Below, one piece after another: positions 28,258 to 34,786 of a stretch of 64,000 nucleotides of DNA. The first letter of the stretch is position 1; each line of letters opens with the position of its first letter. The notes under the pieces are model-generated. The model saw only the letters and a list, made by a program, of their open reading frames with translations. It had not been told where the DNA came from and made no database searches. This DNA comes from Alphaproteobacteria bacterium (GTDB taxonomy: Bacteria; Pseudomonadota; Alphaproteobacteria; Acetobacterales; Acetobacteraceae). Position numbers and translations under genes: made by a program. The stretch lies in assembly GCA_017307285.1 (NCBI GenBank), contig JAFKFI010000065.1:28199-92198 (forward strand), read 5' to 3'.

Positions 28258-28770
28258 GACCGACGCTGTCTCTTGAGAACCCAACGATCTACCAGCGTCA
28301 AGCTGTGCCGCAGCAAAAATCTGAAGACCTGATATCCTGGCATCGGAGGTCACGTGCCCACGCCGAAAGGAAACTGTGGGTGCAGTATGGTGCCAGCCTA
28401 GGTACCGTCGATGAGCTGGGTCTGCCCGATCCGCGGAGCTTTTCTGTCCTTTTCCGTTGCCGTCGGACGGAAGTGGTATCGACGGAAACCTTGCTCGGCT
28501 GGAGCGCACGGGCACCAGACCCGAGGGCGACTTGTTCGTAAGGGAACCGTCCGCCAGGACCAAGGCACAGATTTCCTGCCCGACATAGCCGAGTTGGACA
28601 TCCGCCAAGCGGGCCCACGGGCAGTATGCGGGCGCGGATCGAAAAGTTCGGCGACCCGCCGAGCGAAGGACGGCCGGAGTACCACGGCTTGTGCGATTGT
28701 TGGCTTAGAGGATACTGCGCCCGGCCAGGGCTTGCCGTGTTCGCCGGCACCGAACGGCGGGGGAGGTAGC

Positions 28771-29748
28771 ATGATGATCGCGCGCCGTGCCTTGCTCGCC
28801 GCCGCATTGGGCGCCGTCGCGACACCGCTGCACGCCGCCACGTTGCCAGCCATACGAGTTGGGCTGCTGCGGTTCGGCACGGTGTCGTGGGAGATCGAGG
28901 TCATCCGACGGCACGGGTTCGATGCGGCGGCTGTCGCGATCGAGCCGGTGCAGTTCGCCACCTCTCAAGCCACTCAGACGGCGCTGCAAGCCGGCCGGGT
29001 CGACATGGTGGTGCTGGACTGGCTGTGGGTATCACGCCAGCGCAGCGAGGGCGCCGACTGGACTTTCGTCCCGTTCTCCACTGCCACCGGCGGACTTGTC
29101 GCCCCGGCGGGATCGCCGGTTCGCGAATTGCCCGATCTGAAGGGCCGCCGGCTCGGCGTCGCGGGCAGTCCGCTCGACAAGAGCTGGCTGATCCTGCGGG
29201 CCTACGCCAAGGAGCGCTTCGGCTTCGATCCCGACCGGGCGACCGAGCGAAGCTTCGGCGCGCCCTCGCTGCTGCTGGAGGAGGCGAAGCTCGGGCGGCT
29301 CGACGCGATGCTCAATTTCTGGCCCTTCGCGGCAAAGGCGGAGGCGATCGGCATGCGGACGGTCCTGCCGGTCGAGGACGCCGTGCGCGGCCTCGGCATC
29401 GACGCCAAGGTGCCGTTCATCGGCTACGTGTTCTCGCAAGGTTGGGCCGAGCGCAACCCGGCCGCACTGGCCGGCTTTCTCGCAGCCGCGGGCAAGGCGC
29501 GCGATGTGCTGGCCACCTCGGATGCCGAGTGGGAAACGCTAATGCCGCTCACCGGTGCCGCCAATCAGGCCGAGCTCGAGCACCTGCGTGCCCATTACCG
29601 CCGTGGAATTCCGAGGGCCTGGGGACCGGCGGAGCAGCGAGCCGCCGCACGGCTCTACGGAATTCTGGCGAAGATCGGCGGGCCGACACTGGTCGGCTCC
29701 GCGAACGCCATCGCACCGGGGACATTTTGGCCGGCAGCCTCACTCTGA
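28771..29748 (+). CDS. ABC transporter substrate-binding protein (nitrate/sulfonate/taurine type)
   Basis: A 325-residue periplasmic binding protein of the SsuA/TauA/NMT1-like group. The N-terminus IARRALLAAALGAVATPLHA resembles a twin-arginine signal with cleavage after LHA. The mature domain shows QFATSQATQTALQAGRVDMV and LPDLKGRRLGVAGSPLDKSW, typical of this fold. GGGGGAGG lies four bases before the ATG. First gene of the operon that ends with the UGSC selenoprotein and its partners; the ligand is presumably a small organic ion, identity unknown. Confidence 0.87.
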   Translation: MMIARRALLAAALGAVATPLHAATLPAIRVGLLRFGTVSWEIEVIRRHGFDAAAVAIEPVQFATSQATQTALQAGRVDMVVLDWLWVSRQRSEGADWTFVPFSTATGGLVAPAGSPVRELPDLKGRRLGVAGSPLDKSWLILRAYAKERFGFDPDRATERSFGAPSLLLEEAKLGRLDAMLNFWPFAAKAEAIGMRTVLPVEDAVRGLGIDAKVPFIGYVFSQGWAERNPAALAGFLAAAGKARDVLATSDAEWETLMPLTGAANQAELEHLRAHYRRGIPRAWGPAEQRAAARLYGILAKIGGPTLVGSANAIAPGTFWPAASL

Positions 29749-30524
29749 GCGGGTTCGCGCGTGACCGACGGGCGCGATCCCGTACCTGGACGGCGCCAGG
29801 CCGGCTGCTCTCCTTGCTCGGCTTCTTCGTCCTATGGGAAGCGGTGGCGCGGCTGGTGGGTAATCCCCTGCTGCCACCGGCGAGCAACGTGCTCGTGGCG
29901 ATCGCGCGCGAGACCGCCTCGGGGGCGCTGCCGGAAAATCTTGCCATCACGATGGCCCGCGTCGTCCTCGCCTTCGTCACCTCGATGGTGCTCGGCACGG
30001 CACTCGGTCTCGCGATGGGGGTCTGGCGCCGGGTCGATGTCGCGCTGGATAGCTGGCTGACGGTACTGCTGAACCTGCCCGCACTCGTCGTGATCGTGCT
30101 CATGTATGTCTGGTTTGGCATGAACGAGGTAGCGGCGATCGCCGCCGTCGCGCTGAACAAGCTGCCGAGTACCGCGGTGACGGTGCGGGAGGGCGCCCGG
30201 GCGCTCGACCGCGATCTACTGGAAATGGCGCATAGCTTCGGGATGCGGCGCTGGCCGATCATCCGGCACGTCGTACTGCCGCAGATCTATCCCTATCTGT
30301 TCGCCGCTGCGCGCTCGGGCCTCGCCATCATCTGGAAGATCGTGCTGGTCGTGGAACTGCTCGGGCGCAGCAACGGCGTCGGATTCCAGATCCAGGTGTA
30401 TTTCCAGTTATTCGACGTCACCGGGATTCTTGCCTACACGCTATCCTTCATCTTGGTCGTGCAGCTGATCGAATGGGCCCTGCTGCAGCCGCTCGAGCGA
30501 CGCGCATCGCGGTGGCGGCGATGA
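29727..30524 (+). CDS. ABC transporter permease (SsuC/TauC type)
   Basis: About 265 residues with roughly six membrane helices. The EAA loop sits in EMAHSFGMRRWPIIRHVVLP, which contacts the ATPase. No ATG precedes the first helix; the best start is TTG at 29727 after GGGGAC, giving a 22-base overlap with the binding-protein gene. The N-terminal 15 residues are thus uncertain. Stop overlaps the ATPase ATG. Confidence 0.83.
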   Translation: MAGSLTLSGFARDRRARSRTWTAPGRLLSLLGFFVLWEAVARLVGNPLLPPASNVLVAIARETASGALPENLAITMARVVLAFVTSMVLGTALGLAMGVWRRVDVALDSWLTVLLNLPALVVIVLMYVWFGMNEVAAIAAVALNKLPSTAVTVREGARALDRDLLEMAHSFGMRRWPIIRHVVLPQIYPYLFAAARSGLAIIWKIVLVVELLGRSNGVGFQIQVYFQLFDVTGILAYTLSFILVVQLIEWALLQPLERRASRWRR

Positions 30525-31231
30525 GCTTGCGGGTCCGCATCCGGGACAAGTCGTTCGACGACAGGCCGGTGCTGAAAGGCCTCGAGTTCGACCTCGGCGA
30601 GCGCGAGATCGTCGCCTTGGTCGGCCCCTCGGGCTGTGGCAAGACCACGCTCCTCAAGATCATCGGCGGCCTGGACCTCGACTATGACGGGACGATCGCC
30701 TGGACCGACGCCGGGTCGCCGAGGATCGGCACGATCTTTCAGGAACCCCGGCTGCTGCCCTGGCGGACCGTGCGGCAGAATCTCATCCTCGTCCTGCCGC
30801 CGTACGCTCATCCCGCCGCGGACGAATTGCTCCGACATCTCGGGCTCTGGCCGTTCCGCGACCATTTTCCGCCGACGCTGTCGCTCGGCATGGCGCGGCG
30901 CGTCGCGATCGCGCGGGCCTTCGCCATCGCGCCGGAACTGGTGCTGCTTGACGAGCCGTTCGTCTCGCTCGACCCCGAGATGGCGCAGCGCAGCCGAGAC
31001 GTGCTGCTCGAGGCGTGGCGCCAGCGCGCCACCTCGGTGCTGCTCGTGACGCATGATCCGGTGGGAGCGGCGGCACTCGCCGACCGAATTCTTGTCATGT
31101 CGCCACGCCCGGCCCGAATCGTCACGCAAATCGAGGTGCCGGCGGCCCAGCGCCGCAGCGACCACCCCACAGCACTGCAAGTCGCCGCCCAGTTGGAGGT
31201 CGTGGTCGGGCAGTATCTCGCGCGGACATGA
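30521..31231 (+). CDS. ABC transporter ATP-binding protein
   Basis: A 236-residue ATPase. Walker A is GPSGCGKTT near residue 43, Walker B is LVLLDEP, and the switch His is in LVTHDP. The ABC signature, normally LSGGQ, reads LSLGMARRVAIARA, a degenerate form. The ATG overlaps the permease stop (ATGA). Works with the two preceding genes to import the operon's substrate. Confidence 0.9.
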   Translation: MSLRVRIRDKSFDDRPVLKGLEFDLGEREIVALVGPSGCGKTTLLKIIGGLDLDYDGTIAWTDAGSPRIGTIFQEPRLLPWRTVRQNLILVLPPYAHPAADELLRHLGLWPFRDHFPPTLSLGMARRVAIARAFAIAPELVLLDEPFVSLDPEMAQRSRDVLLEAWRQRATSVLLVTHDPVGAAALADRILVMSPRPARIVTQIEVPAAQRRSDHPTALQVAAQLEVVVGQYLART

Positions 31232-31297: not shown

Positions 31298-32233
31298 ATG
31301 CCGGAATGCTGGGATGTCGTGGTGATCGGCGCGGGACCGGCGGGGCTCACGGCGGCGCAGGTCGCCGGCGCGTCGGGGCTAAGCTGCCTCTGCATCGACC
31401 GCCTCGGTCCGGGGGGCGAACTCATCAATCTCGGGCTCCTGCACGACTGCCCCGATCTTCCGCCCGATACCACCGGCGCCGATCTGGTGACGCGCCTGAT
31501 GGATGCTGCAACCGCCGCCGGGGTCGAGCTGGCGTTCGGCGAGGTTCGGGAACTCCAGCGAGGTGAACCCCGGCGGATCGTCACCGACGACGAGACTTAC
31601 CAGGCGCGGACGGTAATCGTCGCGACGGGTCTGACCCCAGGAAGGCTCGGTGTTCCGGAGGAGGAGCGGTTCGACGGGGTTGGTCTGTCCCATTGCGCGA
31701 GTTGCGACGGGCCGCTGTACAAAGGCGAGAATGTCGTGGTCGCCGGCGCGGGCGAGTGGGCCGCTCAAGAAGCGCTCGATCTGGCGGCTCTGGCCGGGCA
31801 TGTCACGCTGATCTGCCCTGAGCACGAAGCGGCACGACTCTCGAGCGGGCGCGGCAGGCAGCTTGCCGGTTTGACGAATGTGACCGTGATCCCCGGCCGC
31901 ATCGCCTCCCTGGAAGGCGCGGAGGGGCTGGAGGCGGTCGTCATCGAACGTGCTGCGATCCAGGAGCGACACCCGACGCGCGCCGTGTTCGTGCAATCCA
32001 ACCGGCGCGCGGCGCTGGACTTCACCCGTGGTCTGCTGGCCGTGGAAGCGGACGGCCGCGCGTGCGTCGATGGCGACTTGTGTACGAGTGACGAGCAGGC
32101 ATACGCTGCAGGTGATGTCCGTGCCGGAGCACCAGAGCGGATCGCCTCGGCGATCGCCGATGGAAGACGCGCGGGGTTGGCGGTGGCGCGGCTCCTACGG
32201 GGACGGGACGGCGAACAGCAGGGAGGGCGCTGA
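31298..32233 (+). CDS. thioredoxin-reductase-like flavoprotein
   Basis: A 311-residue FAD-dependent disulfide oxidoreductase. FAD binding is shown by GAGPAGLTAAQ at the N-terminus and YAAGDVRAG near the C-terminus. The redox-active disulfide is CASC in LSHCASCDGPLY, as in bacterial TrxR. The second nucleotide-binding motif reads VAGAGEWAAQEA instead of GGGDSAxEEA, and the usual basic NADPH 2'-phosphate patch is not seen, so the electron donor may not be NADPH. AGGAGG precedes the ATG by six bases. Immediately upstream of the UGSC selenoprotein, for which it is the likely electron source. Confidence 0.87.
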   Translation: MPECWDVVVIGAGPAGLTAAQVAGASGLSCLCIDRLGPGGELINLGLLHDCPDLPPDTTGADLVTRLMDAATAAGVELAFGEVRELQRGEPRRIVTDDETYQARTVIVATGLTPGRLGVPEEERFDGVGLSHCASCDGPLYKGENVVVAGAGEWAAQEALDLAALAGHVTLICPEHEAARLSSGRGRQLAGLTNVTVIPGRIASLEGAEGLEAVVIERAAIQERHPTRAVFVQSNRRAALDFTRGLLAVEADGRACVDGDLCTSDEQAYAAGDVRAGAPERIASAIADGRRAGLAVARLLRGRDGEQQGGR

Positions 32234-32236
32234 CTG

Positions 32237-32758
32237 ATGCGCATCGTCAATCCGAGCTTCGGCGTAGCCCCGGCGGGTGCCGAGCAGACCATCATCGGCA
32301 AGGTGAACTGGAACGAGGATCCGATCGTCCTGTTCGCAAACAACAAGCCGAACGCGCGGGAATTGTTGGAAGGCGTGCGCGCCAAGCTGGGCGCGATGCG
32401 GCGCATCGACAACGTCGACTACATCCACAAGAACAGCGCAAGCCAGCCGGCGCCGGGTGCGATGATCGAGGCGGTGGCGCAGAAATATCGCGCGGCCTTG
32501 CTGGCACTCGGCGACTGAGGCTCCTGCTCGTCGTGGAGTTTCCACGACAGTGTCGAATTGAGGAAGCGCGGCGTCGCCAGCCTGGTGATCGCCACTGAGA
32601 CGTTTCGCCCGCTCGTGCTGGCGCAGGCCAAGGCGCGCAACGTCGAGCCCCACCTGATCGTCGTCAAGCATCCGGTCGGCGGGCTCAATGCAGCCGAACT
32701 TGCCGAGCGGATCGACGCGGCCTTCGCCGGGCTCGTGAAGGAAATGCAGGCCGAATGA
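32237..32758 (+). CDS. UGSC-type selenoprotein (in-frame UGA = Sec)
   Basis: The frame opens at ATG 32237 and meets TGA at 32516-32518. It then continues in the same phase for 79 sense codons to a normal stop, giving 173 residues with Sec at position 94. The residues after the UGA are G-S-C, so the active centre reads D-U-G-S-C, the hallmark of the UGSC selenoprotein family. The downstream part (RKRGVASLVIATETF ... HPVGGLNAAELAERI) parallels the C-terminal end of glycine-reductase GrdB (U-G-T-C ... HPLG). A SECIS-like hairpin sits at 32530-32548. A Sec/Cys redox centre acting with the TrxR-like protein is inferred. Two split ORFs from a true stop are the alternative, and less likely. Confidence 0.88.
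32530..32548 (+). promoter_or_regulatory. SECIS-like hairpin after the UGA codon
   Basis: GTCGTGG pairs with CCACGAC around the loop AGTTT (7 bp, 5-base loop). The loop begins 18 bases after the UGA and its second base is G. These values fit the general bacterial SECIS rule: apical loop about 16-37 bases downstream, G at loop position 1 or 2, short stem. Bound by SelB with Sec-tRNA in known systems. Confidence 0.8.
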
Positions 32759-33798
32759 CGGATCAATCCGAGGCCGAGGTCATCGAAATCAGCGAACTCG
32801 GCCCAGAAGACTGGACGGAATACGCCATCGAGCAAGGTTGGAGCGACGGGTTCCCGCTCGTCGCTCCAACCGAAGCCGCGGTCGAGAGGTTCGTGTCGGT
32901 GTGTCGTGGCGACAACGAGCCCTTCCCACCCATCTCGCCGCGCCAGGTCGTCCCGACCTTGCACAGTCTCGCCGCCAATGCCGTCATGGCGGGGTGCCGG
33001 CCGGAGTATTTTCCGGTGTTACTGGCGGCGCTGCGCGGCGTGCTGACGCCTGACTACAATCTGCACGGCACGCTCGCGACAACGCATCCTTGCGCGCCGA
33101 TGATACTGGTGAACGGACCGCTTCGCGACCGGCTCGGCATCAATTACGGGGGCAATTGCTTCGGTCAGGGATGGCGGGCGAACGCAACCATCGGCCGCGC
33201 GCTCGGACTGATCCTGCTGAATGTCGGCGGCGCCAAGCCCGGCGTCATGGACCGCTCCACCCAAGGATCGCCGGCGAAATTCGCCTTCTGCTTCGGCGAG
33301 AACGAAGAGGCCAGCCCGTGGCCGCCCTATCACGTCCGCCGTGGCTTCGATACAGCGGATAGTGTCGTCACGGTGATGTCGGGCGAAGGGCCACATAACA
33401 TCAACGACCACGCAAGCACGACGGGCGAGGGCCTGCTCACTACGATGGCCGCGTCGATCGCGCAACCCGGCGCTAACACCATCTATGGCAAGGGTCCTCA
33501 TGTCGTGGCGATCGGGCCGGAGCACGCCGCGACCCTGCATCGTGACGGCTGGACCATCCCGGCGCTGCAGCAGGCGCTGTTCGAGCGCGCCCGGGTCCGC
33601 GTGTCGGACGTCTCGCCGGAGAACCAGGTGCAATACGAGGAATCCGGCCATCACCCAGTCGATGGCCGCTACCCCGTCTCGCCCACGCCGGAGGACATCC
33701 ACATCCTTGTCGCCGGCGGCCCGGGCAAGCACTCCGCGTGGATTCCGTCCTTCGGCGGCACGGCGGTCTGCTCGGTGCGCGTCAGACTGCCGGATTGA
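32755..33798 (+). CDS. UGSC-operon protein A, unknown function
   Basis: A 347-residue cytoplasmic protein with no signal peptide or membrane segment. The most distinctive block is GGNCFGQGWRANATIGRA, followed by NVGGAKPGVMD and KFAFCFGENEE. The next gene carries the same block, so the two are paralogs. Both blocks contain a conserved Cys (GNC and FCF). The ATG overlaps the selenoprotein stop by ATGA, showing tight coupling with the UGSC protein. I do not recognise an enzymatic family; a catalytic or substrate-binding partner of the selenoprotein is inferred from context. Confidence 0.82.
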   Translation: MTDQSEAEVIEISELGPEDWTEYAIEQGWSDGFPLVAPTEAAVERFVSVCRGDNEPFPPISPRQVVPTLHSLAANAVMAGCRPEYFPVLLAALRGVLTPDYNLHGTLATTHPCAPMILVNGPLRDRLGINYGGNCFGQGWRANATIGRALGLILLNVGGAKPGVMDRSTQGSPAKFAFCFGENEEASPWPPYHVRRGFDTADSVVTVMSGEGPHNINDHASTTGEGLLTTMAASIAQPGANTIYGKGPHVVAIGPEHAATLHRDGWTIPALQQALFERARVRVSDVSPENQVQYEESGHHPVDGRYPVSPTPEDIHILVAGGPGKHSAWIPSFGGTAVCSVRVRLPD

Positions 33799-33805
33799 AC
33801 CCTCG

Positions 33806-34786
33806 ATGATCGACTCGGCCGAGACGCCACTTTTCGCCGAGACGACGCCCTGGGAGGACGCACAGACGCAGCTGGAGGCGCTCGGCCTGGGCGATGGACT
33901 ACCGCTTGTCCCGCCCACCGCCCGCCGCATGGATCGGATGCTGGCCGGGGTGGTCGACCCCGAACGCTCGTACGGCCCGGTGCCGCCGCTGTTCGGCGAC
34001 CTGACCGCCGCCGCCATTGCCTATCAGTGCGTCCTCGCCGGCTGCGTGCCCGCCGAGCTTCGCGTCGTGCTGACGGCAGTCGCCGCGTGCCTGGAGCCGC
34101 AATTCAACCTGCTCGGCATCCAGACCACGACGGGCACGCCGACAGTTGCAGCGATCGTGCATGGGCCGATCGTCCGCTCGCTCGGCATGAACGCTGAGGG
34201 CAACTGTCTCGGGCCAGGAAACCGGGCGAATGCCTGCATCGGCCGGGCGGTGCAGCTGGCGCTGACCAATATCGGCGGCGCTCGGCCGGGCATTGGCGAC
34301 ATGGCGACGATGGGCCAGCCGGGGAAATACACGTTCTGCTTCGCCGAGGCTGGGAATGCGAGCCTGCCTTCCCTGCCCGCTCGTCGTGGCTTATCCGGCG
34401 ATCATGGCGCCGTCACGGTGCTTGGCGTCTCGGGCACTATGGAGGTGCTTCCTCTTTCCGAAGATGCAACGCCGCAAGGGGTGCTTGGTCCCTTGGCCGC
34501 CGCCATCCGGGGCGCGCAAATAGCCAGCAACGCCGGCCGCGCTCGCCCAGCCAGCGAGCAATTTCTCCTGCTGCCACCAGAGATCTTCGATCGTTTCGCC
34601 AAGGCGGGCTGGACCCTAGCCGACATCCAGGCCGGGATGGTGCGCGCGCTATCCGAGGTCGAGGTCGAATGTTCCGCCGAGGACGTTTGCCCCGTCCTGA
34701 CCGGAGGTGCCGGGATCAAGATGACCTATCTCCCCCTCTGGTCGGGTGGCACCCGGTCCGTTACCGCCGAGTTGCTACAGCCCTGA
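33806..34786 (+). CDS. UGSC-operon protein B, paralog of protein A
   Basis: A 326-residue protein that repeats the pattern of the preceding gene: GNCLGPGNRANACIGRA, then NIGGARPGIGD and KYTFCFAEAG. The conserved GNC and FCF cysteines are kept. Overall similarity is partial, with both ends different, as expected for a heteromeric pair from an old duplication. It begins seven bases after the stop of protein A and is the last gene of the operon. Function unknown. Confidence 0.82.
   Translation: MIDSAETPLFAETTPWEDAQTQLEALGLGDGLPLVPPTARRMDRMLAGVVDPERSYGPVPPLFGDLTAAAIAYQCVLAGCVPAELRVVLTAVAACLEPQFNLLGIQTTTGTPTVAAIVHGPIVRSLGMNAEGNCLGPGNRANACIGRAVQLALTNIGGARPGIGDMATMGQPGKYTFCFAEAGNASLPSLPARRGLSGDHGAVTVLGVSGTMEVLPLSEDATPQGVLGPLAAAIRGAQIASNAGRARPASEQFLLLPPEIFDRFAKAGWTLADIQAGMVRALSEVEVECSAEDVCPVLTGGAGIKMTYLPLWSGGTRSVTAELLQP

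What the first reader, a model, noticed from the sequence alone, without database searches (positions are those of the whole stretch)
32237..32758. In-frame UGA coding for selenocysteine in a U-G-S-C motif
The gene reads through TGA at 32516-32518 into 79 further codons in the same phase, and the next residues are Gly-Ser-Cys, the motif that names the UGSC family. A SECIS-like hairpin (GTCGTGG/CCACGAC, loop AGTTT with G second) starts 12 bases after the UGA, with its loop at 18 bases. Ordinary annotation would split this into two ORFs and miss a selenoprotein.
Basis: partly seen in the sequence, partly recalled or inferred. Interest (0 to 1): 0.95.

Follow-up and report, generated by a model that had tools for sequence, protein, structure and literature searches.

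The report
UGSC selenoprotein with a constant partner
A bacterial gene whose internal UGA stop codon is predicted to be read as selenocysteine belongs to the known but functionally unexplained UGSC protein family, and in nearly all relatives examined it sits beside the same unnamed partner gene, which would make the family's function testable.

Summary
32237-32758 reads through TGA 32516-32518 into 79 more codons; the protein matches Pfam UGSC (112.5 bits, cut-off 25). The genome has selA, two selB, a tRNA-Sec (TCA) and selD. All 66 bacterial loci of this subfamily from one scan have TGA there; four archaeal ones have Cys codons. Four hairpin codons are fixed at synonymous sites. UGSC proteins are in print as selenoproteins since at least 2008, so this is a new member of a known kind, below NCBIfam's equivalog cut-off. 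I found no account of the module around it. In two genome samples every genome with UGSC also has an unnamed DUF family (24 of 24; 4 of 4, own genome in both), usually adjacent, sometimes fused. A thioredoxin-reductase-like gene is often beside it, and in some relatives selB and tRNA-Sec lie just upstream. Weak profile matches tie UGSC to the Sec domain of glycine and proline reductases. I infer a TrxR-fed selenoenzyme, UGSC as redox and DUF as likely substrate subunit; the substrate is unknown.

The parts
32237..32758 (+). UGSC-family gene with in-frame UGA; 173 residues if the UGA is read as Sec
   Evidence: Pfam PF24696 112.5 bits over cut-off 25; NCBIfam NF041046 108.8 bits, below cut-off 125
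32516..32518 (+). TGA predicted to code selenocysteine (residue 94), first of U-G-S-C
   Evidence: TGA in 66 of 66 bacterial loci, TGT/TGC in its 4 archaeal ones
32530..32548 (+). SECIS-like hairpin, 7-pair stem, loop AGTTT
   Evidence: fold; fixed synonymous codons; C-G/G-C swap at one pair; same geometry after the UGA of the genome's own FdhA-like frame
31298..32233 (+). thioredoxin-reductase-like flavoprotein with CASC motif, ends 3 bases before the UGSC start
   Evidence: PF07992 86.2 bits; TIGR01292 177.9 bits, below equivalog cut-off 343.45; sequence; just upstream of UGSC in 40 of 65 relatives with room
32755..33798 (+). DUF1, unnamed partner family; its ATG overlaps the UGSC stop (ATGA)
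   Evidence: no Pfam or NCBIfam match; 7977 of 7997 scored candidates matched; within 700 bases downstream in 62 of 63 relatives with room
33806..34786 (+). DUF2, paralog of DUF1 (30% identity)
   Evidence: a DUF2-type hit downstream in the fetched stretch in 54 of 58 relatives with room
28711..29748 (+). SsuA/NMT1-like ABC substrate-binding protein (start codon uncertain); link to the module seen only here
   Evidence: PF09084 26.9 bits, TIGR01728 26.5 bits, below cut-off
29751..30524 (+). ABC permease, best NCBIfam match SaoP (98.8 bits, cut-off 295, not met)
30473..31231 (+). ABC ATPase of taurine/sulfonate type (all NCBIfam cut-offs shown not met)

Best explanation
The gene at 32237-32758 encodes a UGSC-family protein whose in-frame UGA is predicted to be read as selenocysteine, and the protein likely works as the redox subunit of a two-part reductase with the DUF protein encoded next to it, with the thioredoxin-reductase-like enzyme upstream likely supplying its electrons. 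Shown: family match, conserved UGA, conserved hairpin codons, Sec genes in the genome, and the constant UGSC-DUF pairing, including natural fusions. Inferred: SelB reads the UGA through the hairpin; Sec94 and Cys97 form a reducible Se-S pair; the DUF subunit (Cys81 invariant in 24 aligned sequences) binds a small organic substrate that the selenol attacks; the resulting Se-S or mixed bond is reduced by NAD(P)H through the TrxR-like protein (in the second copy on contig C93, perhaps through the thioredoxin domain fused to the DUF). This would resemble glycine or proline reductase, whose Sec domain is a likely distant relative of UGSC. The substrate is not known.
For: Read-through: TGA in 66 of 66 bacterial loci; Ser99 TCG, Ser101 AGT, Phe102 TTC and Asp104 GAC in 66 of 66 sequences (3 of 100,000 random draws of conserved columns reach the hairpin's codon-entropy deficit); 96.4% of stem cells paired against at most 50% in slid versions; selA, selB, tRNA-Sec and selD present. 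selB is hit in the fetched stretch in 15 of 70 loci and ARAGORN finds tRNA-Sec in 7; in L056 the order is selB, tRNA-Sec, TrxR-like, UGSC, DUF1, DUF2. Module: UGSC and DUF in the same 24 of 147 relatives, the DUF search adding one weak partial hit, and in the same 4 of 299 genomes of the phylum, where each DUF lies beside a UGSC (own genome in both samples); a DUF hit in 30 of 30 loci fetched; fusions L045, L047, L048, L055; fused model pLDDT 90.1, pTM 0.91. Electron path: TrxR-like hit beside UGSC in 45 of 65 relatives with room (40 upstream, 5 downstream, two of these on the other strand); thioredoxin domain on the C93 DUF. Relation to GrdB/PrdB: TIGR01917 matched by 3 of 18 UGSC members, best E 1.7e-5; 5 of 10 members scanned with a looser limit match Grd or Prd models at E 0.00057 to 0.046; L128 hits both PF07355 (35.8 bits) and PF24696 (20.2 bits, below cut-off); hhalign of a deep UGSC set against GRDB-like proteins, probability 65% (local, E 5.9e-5) and 53% (global), Cys aligned to Cys.
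Against: No TrxR-like hit near UGSC in 20 of 65 relatives with room, so it is not obligatory in cis. The window protein has no GRDB match at E 0.1 and no Grd or Prd match in NCBIfam; 5 of the 10 members, L056 of this subfamily among them, have none; PF07355 has no match in this genome; hhalign with shallower UGSC alignment gave only 20-22%. The window protein's next Pfam hit is a weak one to BLH_phosphatase (E 0.003, below cut-off), unexplained. L097 has no DUF downstream despite 4.4 kb of room, and the Methanobrevibacter locus L124 shows none. Not every DUF hit is near a UGSC hit: G081 has two on other contigs. In one search two of five covariation measures do not exceed the shuffles, and the C-G/G-C split follows the subfamilies, so it may be a single event. 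Two of the four Cys members folded (L028, L033) have z-scores of -2.1 and -2.0, beyond the window's -1.76, and L033 has a hairpin in the same stretch, so energy does not tell UGA from Cys members. The UGSC fold matches many unrelated Rossmann-like proteins and the fused model has no PDB match with E of 0.001 or less, so chemistry and substrate are guesses.
Confidence: 0.6

Rival explanations
1. The UGA is a true stop: the gene ends at residue 93 and the downstream frame is a separate or decayed ORF.
For: Standard ORF calling splits it.
Against: TGA in 66 of 66 bacterial loci with both flanks conserved, Cys in archaeal ones, fixed hairpin codons, Sec genes present.
Confidence: 0.02
2. UGSC is a general thiol-disulfide oxidoreductase or peroxidase of thioredoxin type, as the 2008 ocean survey suggested, and the DUF is merely its target protein.
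For: UxxC motif; TrxR-like gene often beside it; thioredoxin domain on the C93 DUF; [quoted passage not shown]
Against: The predicted fold is a Rossmann/flavodoxin-like alternation and no thioredoxin is among the 50 listed VIA rows (not an exclusion); two lysines (K37, K65) and H145-P146 are invariant in the 18 sequences of A2, which leaves out fused and archaeal members, and hint at more than a plain thiol carrier.
Confidence: 0.2
3. The module handles metals or organometals (mercury, selenium or arsenic species), like the SAO genes, the ABC transporter bringing in the compound.
For: The permease's best NCBIfam match is SaoP; the TrxR-like protein matches MerA weakly (24.7 bits, cut-off 454).
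Against: SaoP and MerA cut-offs far from met; no relative of the transporter was hit next to UGSC in the 70 loci, some of which lack flank.
Confidence: 0.1
4. UGSC-DUF is a reductive enzyme but unrelated to GrdB/PrdB, the profile matches reflecting a shared UxxC-plus-helix motif only.
For: Hits are short and weak, and absent for the window protein itself.
Against: Different libraries and comparisons point to the same families in a compatible register.
Confidence: 0.25

Closest known systems
UGSC-containing selenoprotein family (Pfam PF24696, NCBIfam NF041046)
   Same: Profile match over the Pfam cut-off, U-G-S-C motif, UGA with SECIS-like hairpin.
   Different: 108.8 bits against NF041046's cut-off of 125; this subfamily reads UGSCSSWSF where the other members aligned read UGSC followed by [TSC][ST]C.
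Selenoprotein B of glycine, sarcosine, betaine and proline reductases (GrdB/PrdB, PF07355, TIGR01917, TIGR04483)
   Same: UxxC before a helix; weak profile matches of several UGSC members; TrxR nearby as in grd operons (recalled).
   Different: Only about 170 residues; no direct match of the window protein; the partner is the DUF, not GrdA/GrdC/GrdD/GrdE (recalled).
UGSC/Unknown_1 fusion of the ocean survey (PMC2398784)
   Same: A UGSC domain fused to a conserved domain of unknown function, as in L045, L047, L048 and L055.
   Different: The paper's alignment (Figure S1) was not seen, so that Unknown_1 is this DUF is an inference; the passages read mention no separate, operon-borne form.
SAO selenoprotein/transporter set (SaoP, NF040733)
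   Same: ABC permease of the same broad type upstream.
   Different: 98.8 bits against a cut-off of 295.

Membership tests
UGSC family (Pfam PF24696) | profile score over the curated cut-off | tested here: met
   112.5 bits, cut-off 25
UGSC family (Pfam PF24696) | U/C-G-S-C motif with UGA or Cys codon | tested here: met
UGSC equivalog (NCBIfam NF041046) | score over the equivalog cut-off | tested here: not met
   108.8 bits, cut-off 125; so filed under the Pfam family, not the equivalog
bacterial selenoprotein | SECIS-like hairpin shortly after the UGA with a conserved loop G (criteria recalled) | tested here: met
   loop G invariant in 24 of 24 chosen rows; energy z-score only -1.76
bacterial selenoprotein | selA, selB, selC, selD in the genome | tested here: met
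   of the two tRNA-Sec hits over the cut-off, ARAGORN calls the one on C109 tRNA-Ser
bacterial selenoprotein | selenium actually incorporated | not testable with these tools
   needs 75Se labelling or mass spectrometry
GrdB/PrdB (PF07355) | the protein itself matches the family profile | tested here: not met
   no GRDB hit at E 0.1; so likened to, not filed under, this family
GrdB/PrdB (PF07355) | Sec-domain homology in other UGSC members | tested here: inconclusive
   3 of 18 members at E 0.001 or better, 5 of 10 at E 0.05; hhalign 65% and 53%, 20-22% with the shallower set
thioredoxin fold | thioredoxin topology of the UGSC protein | tested here: inconclusive
   model is Rossmann/flavodoxin-like; the listed structural rows are not thioredoxins, which does not exclude it
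thioredoxin-disulfide reductase (TIGR01292), for the upstream gene | score over the equivalog cut-off | tested here: not met
   177.9 bits, cut-off 343.45; so 'TrxR-like'
SAO permease SaoP (NF040733) | score over the equivalog cut-off | tested here: not met
   98.8 bits, cut-off 295

The most novel reading that the evidence does not exclude
UGSC proteins are the detached selenocysteine domain of the GrdB/PrdB reductase superfamily, and together with the unnamed DUF they form a new class of widespread selenoenzyme, fed by a dedicated TrxR-like reductase and carried in some bacteria as one island with its own selB and tRNA-Sec, that reductively breaks down a still unknown small molecule outside the classical amino-acid-fermenting anaerobes.
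Probability: 0.35. Interest if true: 0.8.

Novelty: new member of a known kind. Interest (0 to 1): 0.5.

Why it matters
UGSC proteins are among the commonest selenoproteins in ocean and other aquatic metagenomes (PMC2398784, PMC9402790; passages), and a 2026 review says the functions of this group of selenoproteins remain largely uncharacterised (PMC13188914; passages). A partner present in every genome with UGSC in both samples, a likely electron donor and a likely enzymatic relative turn 'unknown' into a testable complex. It also shows an annotation trap: many fused UGSC-DUF records among the 120 listed are about 465 aa long, and those of that length shown begin just after the motif.

Tried and rejected
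Rejected: a real stop codon or pseudogene. Rejected as general: the ABC transporter as part of the module; relatives of it were not hit next to UGSC elsewhere. Tried without gain: Rfam at gathering thresholds on the window, no hit; PDB sequence search with UGSC, one chance-level hit (E 0.41), and with the DUF, none; Foldseek and VIA on the UGSC model gave generic Rossmann-like rows and on the fused model VIA rows mostly on the UGSC half, so the DUF fold is untested rather than new; Pfam on DUF members gave only weak chance-like hits. Neighbour clustering: besides DUF, TrxR-like and selB I judged the recurring genes lineage-bound from their positions and did not test that further. The SAO literature search mostly returned unrelated words. 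Whether the fusion model places Sec near the DUF's Cys81 could not be measured, as coordinates were not in the Python box.

One search used the window plus 65 of the 66 bacterial loci (L120 left out) and none of the four archaeal ones; within its six hairpin columns Ser98 and His103 do vary. One search used 24 chosen UGA rows and left out the fused ones, whose stem is shifted by one base. A5 holds two near-duplicate pairs (L056/P0010, L101/P0117). One search counted only loci with enough flank, at set distances. The selB count includes two partial hits (L064; L107, 35% over 201 aa) and one on the other strand (L066). In the phylum searches only part of the first-look candidates was scored per genome. 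Genomes of one family are not independent, so the Fisher value (1e-26) overstates.

Full report
What is there. The frame 32237-32758 is open except for TGA at 32516-32518; read through, it gives 173 residues with Asp93-Sec94-Gly-Ser-Cys97. It matches Pfam UGSC at 112.5 bits (cut-off 25) over residues 18-170, that is on both sides of the UGA. NCBIfam's UGSC equivalog gives 108.8 bits, below its cut-off of 125, so this is a divergent member of the broader family.

Is the UGA selenocysteine? The genome (5.68 Mb, 182 contigs) has one selA, two selB over the cut-off, a tRNA-Sec with anticodon TCA (a second tRNA-Sec model hit on C109 is tRNA-Ser by ARAGORN) and selD. A second UGSC gene on contig C93 also has an in-frame TGA. 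A scan of genome contigs with the subfamily alignment gave 70 loci: TGA in 66, all titled as bacteria; TGT or TGC in the four titled as Methanobacteriaceae or Methanobrevibacter. Six of the 66 read UGAC instead of UGSC. One of the two search patterns contained the Cys form, which favours Cys hits, yet nearly all came back as TGA. In 147 genomes of relatives PF24696 gave 32 matches over the cut-off in 24 genomes: 24 with one TGA and 8 without a stop, of which seven read Cys and one (L050) is a partial hit that I did not resolve. One TGA member, L049, reads USTC.

The hairpin. In 66 sequences (window and 65 relatives) Ser99 is always TCG, Ser101 always AGT, Phe102 always TTC and Asp104 always GAC, though most other conserved residues of the gene use mixed codons; Ser98 (mostly TCA or TCG) and His103 (CAC or CAT) vary. 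3 of 100,000 random draws of conserved columns matched the mean deficit of these six. Across 24 chosen UGA rows from several subfamilies 96.4% of stem cells pair; slid versions reach at most 50%; one pair is C-G in 12 and G-C in 12 rows, another is G-U or G-C, and the rest scarcely vary. The number of pairs with a two-sided change and of further pair types does not exceed the shuffles, and the 12/12 split follows subfamilies. The same genome has an FdhA-like frame split by UGA (ARI-UGA-HSS; family named from recall) whose hairpin has the same position and a loop AGTCT, an internal control. Against: the energy z-score of the window hairpin is -1.76, no better than those of two of the four Cys members folded (L028 -2.14, L033 -2.03), and L033 folds a hairpin in the same stretch.

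The module. TrxR-like (31298-32233), UGSC (32237-32758), DUF1 (32755-33798) and DUF2 (33806-34786) follow each other with gaps of 3, -4 and 7 bases, so one operon is likely. The DUF has no Pfam or NCBIfam match although 7977 of 7997 scored candidates are homologs. Of the subfamily relatives with enough flank, 62 of 63 have DUF1 within 700 bases downstream, 54 of 58 also a DUF2-type hit further down, and 45 of 65 a TrxR-like hit (40 upstream, 5 downstream, two of these on the other strand). L097 is the DUF1 exception. In the wider family a DUF homolog lies in 30 of 30 loci fetched, Sec or Cys, before or after UGSC, and in L045, L047, L048 and L055 the two are one frame. Presence agrees genome by genome: UGSC in 24 of 147, DUF in the same 24 plus one weak partial hit in G108; in 299 genomes drawn across the phylum, both in the same four, the window's genome among them, and there each DUF lies beside a UGSC. 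DUF copies without a nearby UGSC exist: G081 has two on other contigs. In the archaeal loci three of four have the DUF; L124 shows none.

Link to the Sec machinery. In 15 of 70 loci selB is hit in the fetched stretch (L064 and L107 only partly, L066 on the other strand), and ARAGORN finds tRNA-Sec in 7. In L056 (Crenalkalicoccus roseus, order Acetobacterales) selB, tRNA-Sec, TrxR-like, UGSC, DUF1 and DUF2 lie head to tail. In the window's genome the Sec genes are on other contigs.

How it may work. The UGSC model (pLDDT 86) is a Rossmann-like alternation of strands and helices, with the motif on the loop before a helix; structural matches are generic. The family shows faint but repeated kinship with the Sec part of GrdB/PrdB: TIGR01917 matches 3 of 18 members, best E 1.7e-5; of ten members scanned with a looser limit L051 and L038 match TIGR01917 and GrdF, and L028, L033 and L045 match PrdB, all far below the cut-offs, while the other five match none; L128, a Cys protein, matches both GRDB and, below cut-off, UGSC; profile comparison gave 65% (local) and 53% (global) probability with Cys on Cys, but only 20-22% with a shallower set. 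The window protein itself shows none of this. PF07355 was found in 19 of 147 relatives and not in this genome. In A2 (18 sequences, no fused or archaeal members) K37, K65, D93, the motif, D104, G112, F123, H145 and P146 are among the invariant residues; in A5 (24 DUF sequences, two near-duplicate pairs) Cys81 and 19 other residues are invariant. The C93 DUF has an N-terminal thioredoxin-like domain: all 23 PDB hits up to E 1 are named thioredoxin, best 4.8e-4. The fused protein models well (pLDDT 90, pTM 0.91). From this I infer, and did not show, a reductase in which UGSC's selenol acts on a substrate held by the DUF and is restored by the TrxR-like enzyme.

Comparison with print. UGSC plus selenoprotein occurs in 8 papers of the library; I read passages in seven (PMC13188914, PMC2398784, PMC9312934, PMC9402790, PMC5029168, PMC7539508, PMC5330540) and only the listing of PMC7435645. 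The passages name the family as a selenoprotein without a known function; the 2008 survey mentions a fusion with 'Unknown_1', perhaps this DUF (its figure was not seen). UGSC with thioredoxin reductase and operon gave four of the same papers; I saw no account of the module in the passages read. Preprints and most subscription papers are not in the library.

Verdict. The selenoprotein is near certain as a prediction and of a known kind; the module and the link to GrdB/PrdB are what deserve a second look.

Noticed in passing
G000:C43 (L024) and G000:C162 (L025): The genome has two selB genes: one on C43 beside tRNA-Sec and near a UGA-containing FdhA-like frame, one on C162; the UGSC-linked SelB of L070 matches C162 over more of its length (44% over 630 aa) than C43 (43% over 357 aa). 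The assembly is listed as 1.52% contaminated, so a stray contig is possible.
   Followed up: partly
L024:2280-2282 (-): UGA in an FdhA-like frame (named from recall) followed by a hairpin with loop AGTCT, apparently a second kind of selenoprotein in this genome.
   Followed up: partly
L097, L100, L101, L103, L104, L118: Six relatives read UGA-Gly-Ala-Cys instead of UGSC; L049 reads USTC.
   Followed up: no
P0122-P0241: Many of the 120 listed database entries for fused UGSC-DUF proteins are about 465 aa; those of that length shown begin just after the UGSC motif, so the Sec half is lost in annotation.
   Followed up: partly
L126, L127, L129, L130, L132, L133, L136, L137, L140, L145: GRDB-like frames in relatives end just after a conserved stretch (LLVPV, LVPA and the like) where others read on into PNCPVC; possibly UGA-encoded GrdB-like selenoproteins; the stop codon was not checked.
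   Followed up: no
28711-31231: An ABC transporter of sulfonate/taurine/Sao-like type lies directly upstream of the module in this window; no relative of it was hit next to UGSC in the 70 loci.
   Followed up: partly
32237-32530: The first 98 residues of the UGSC protein give a weak, below-cut-off Pfam match to BLH_phosphatase (E 0.003) and to TIGR01244 sulfur transferase (E 0.037).
   Followed up: no
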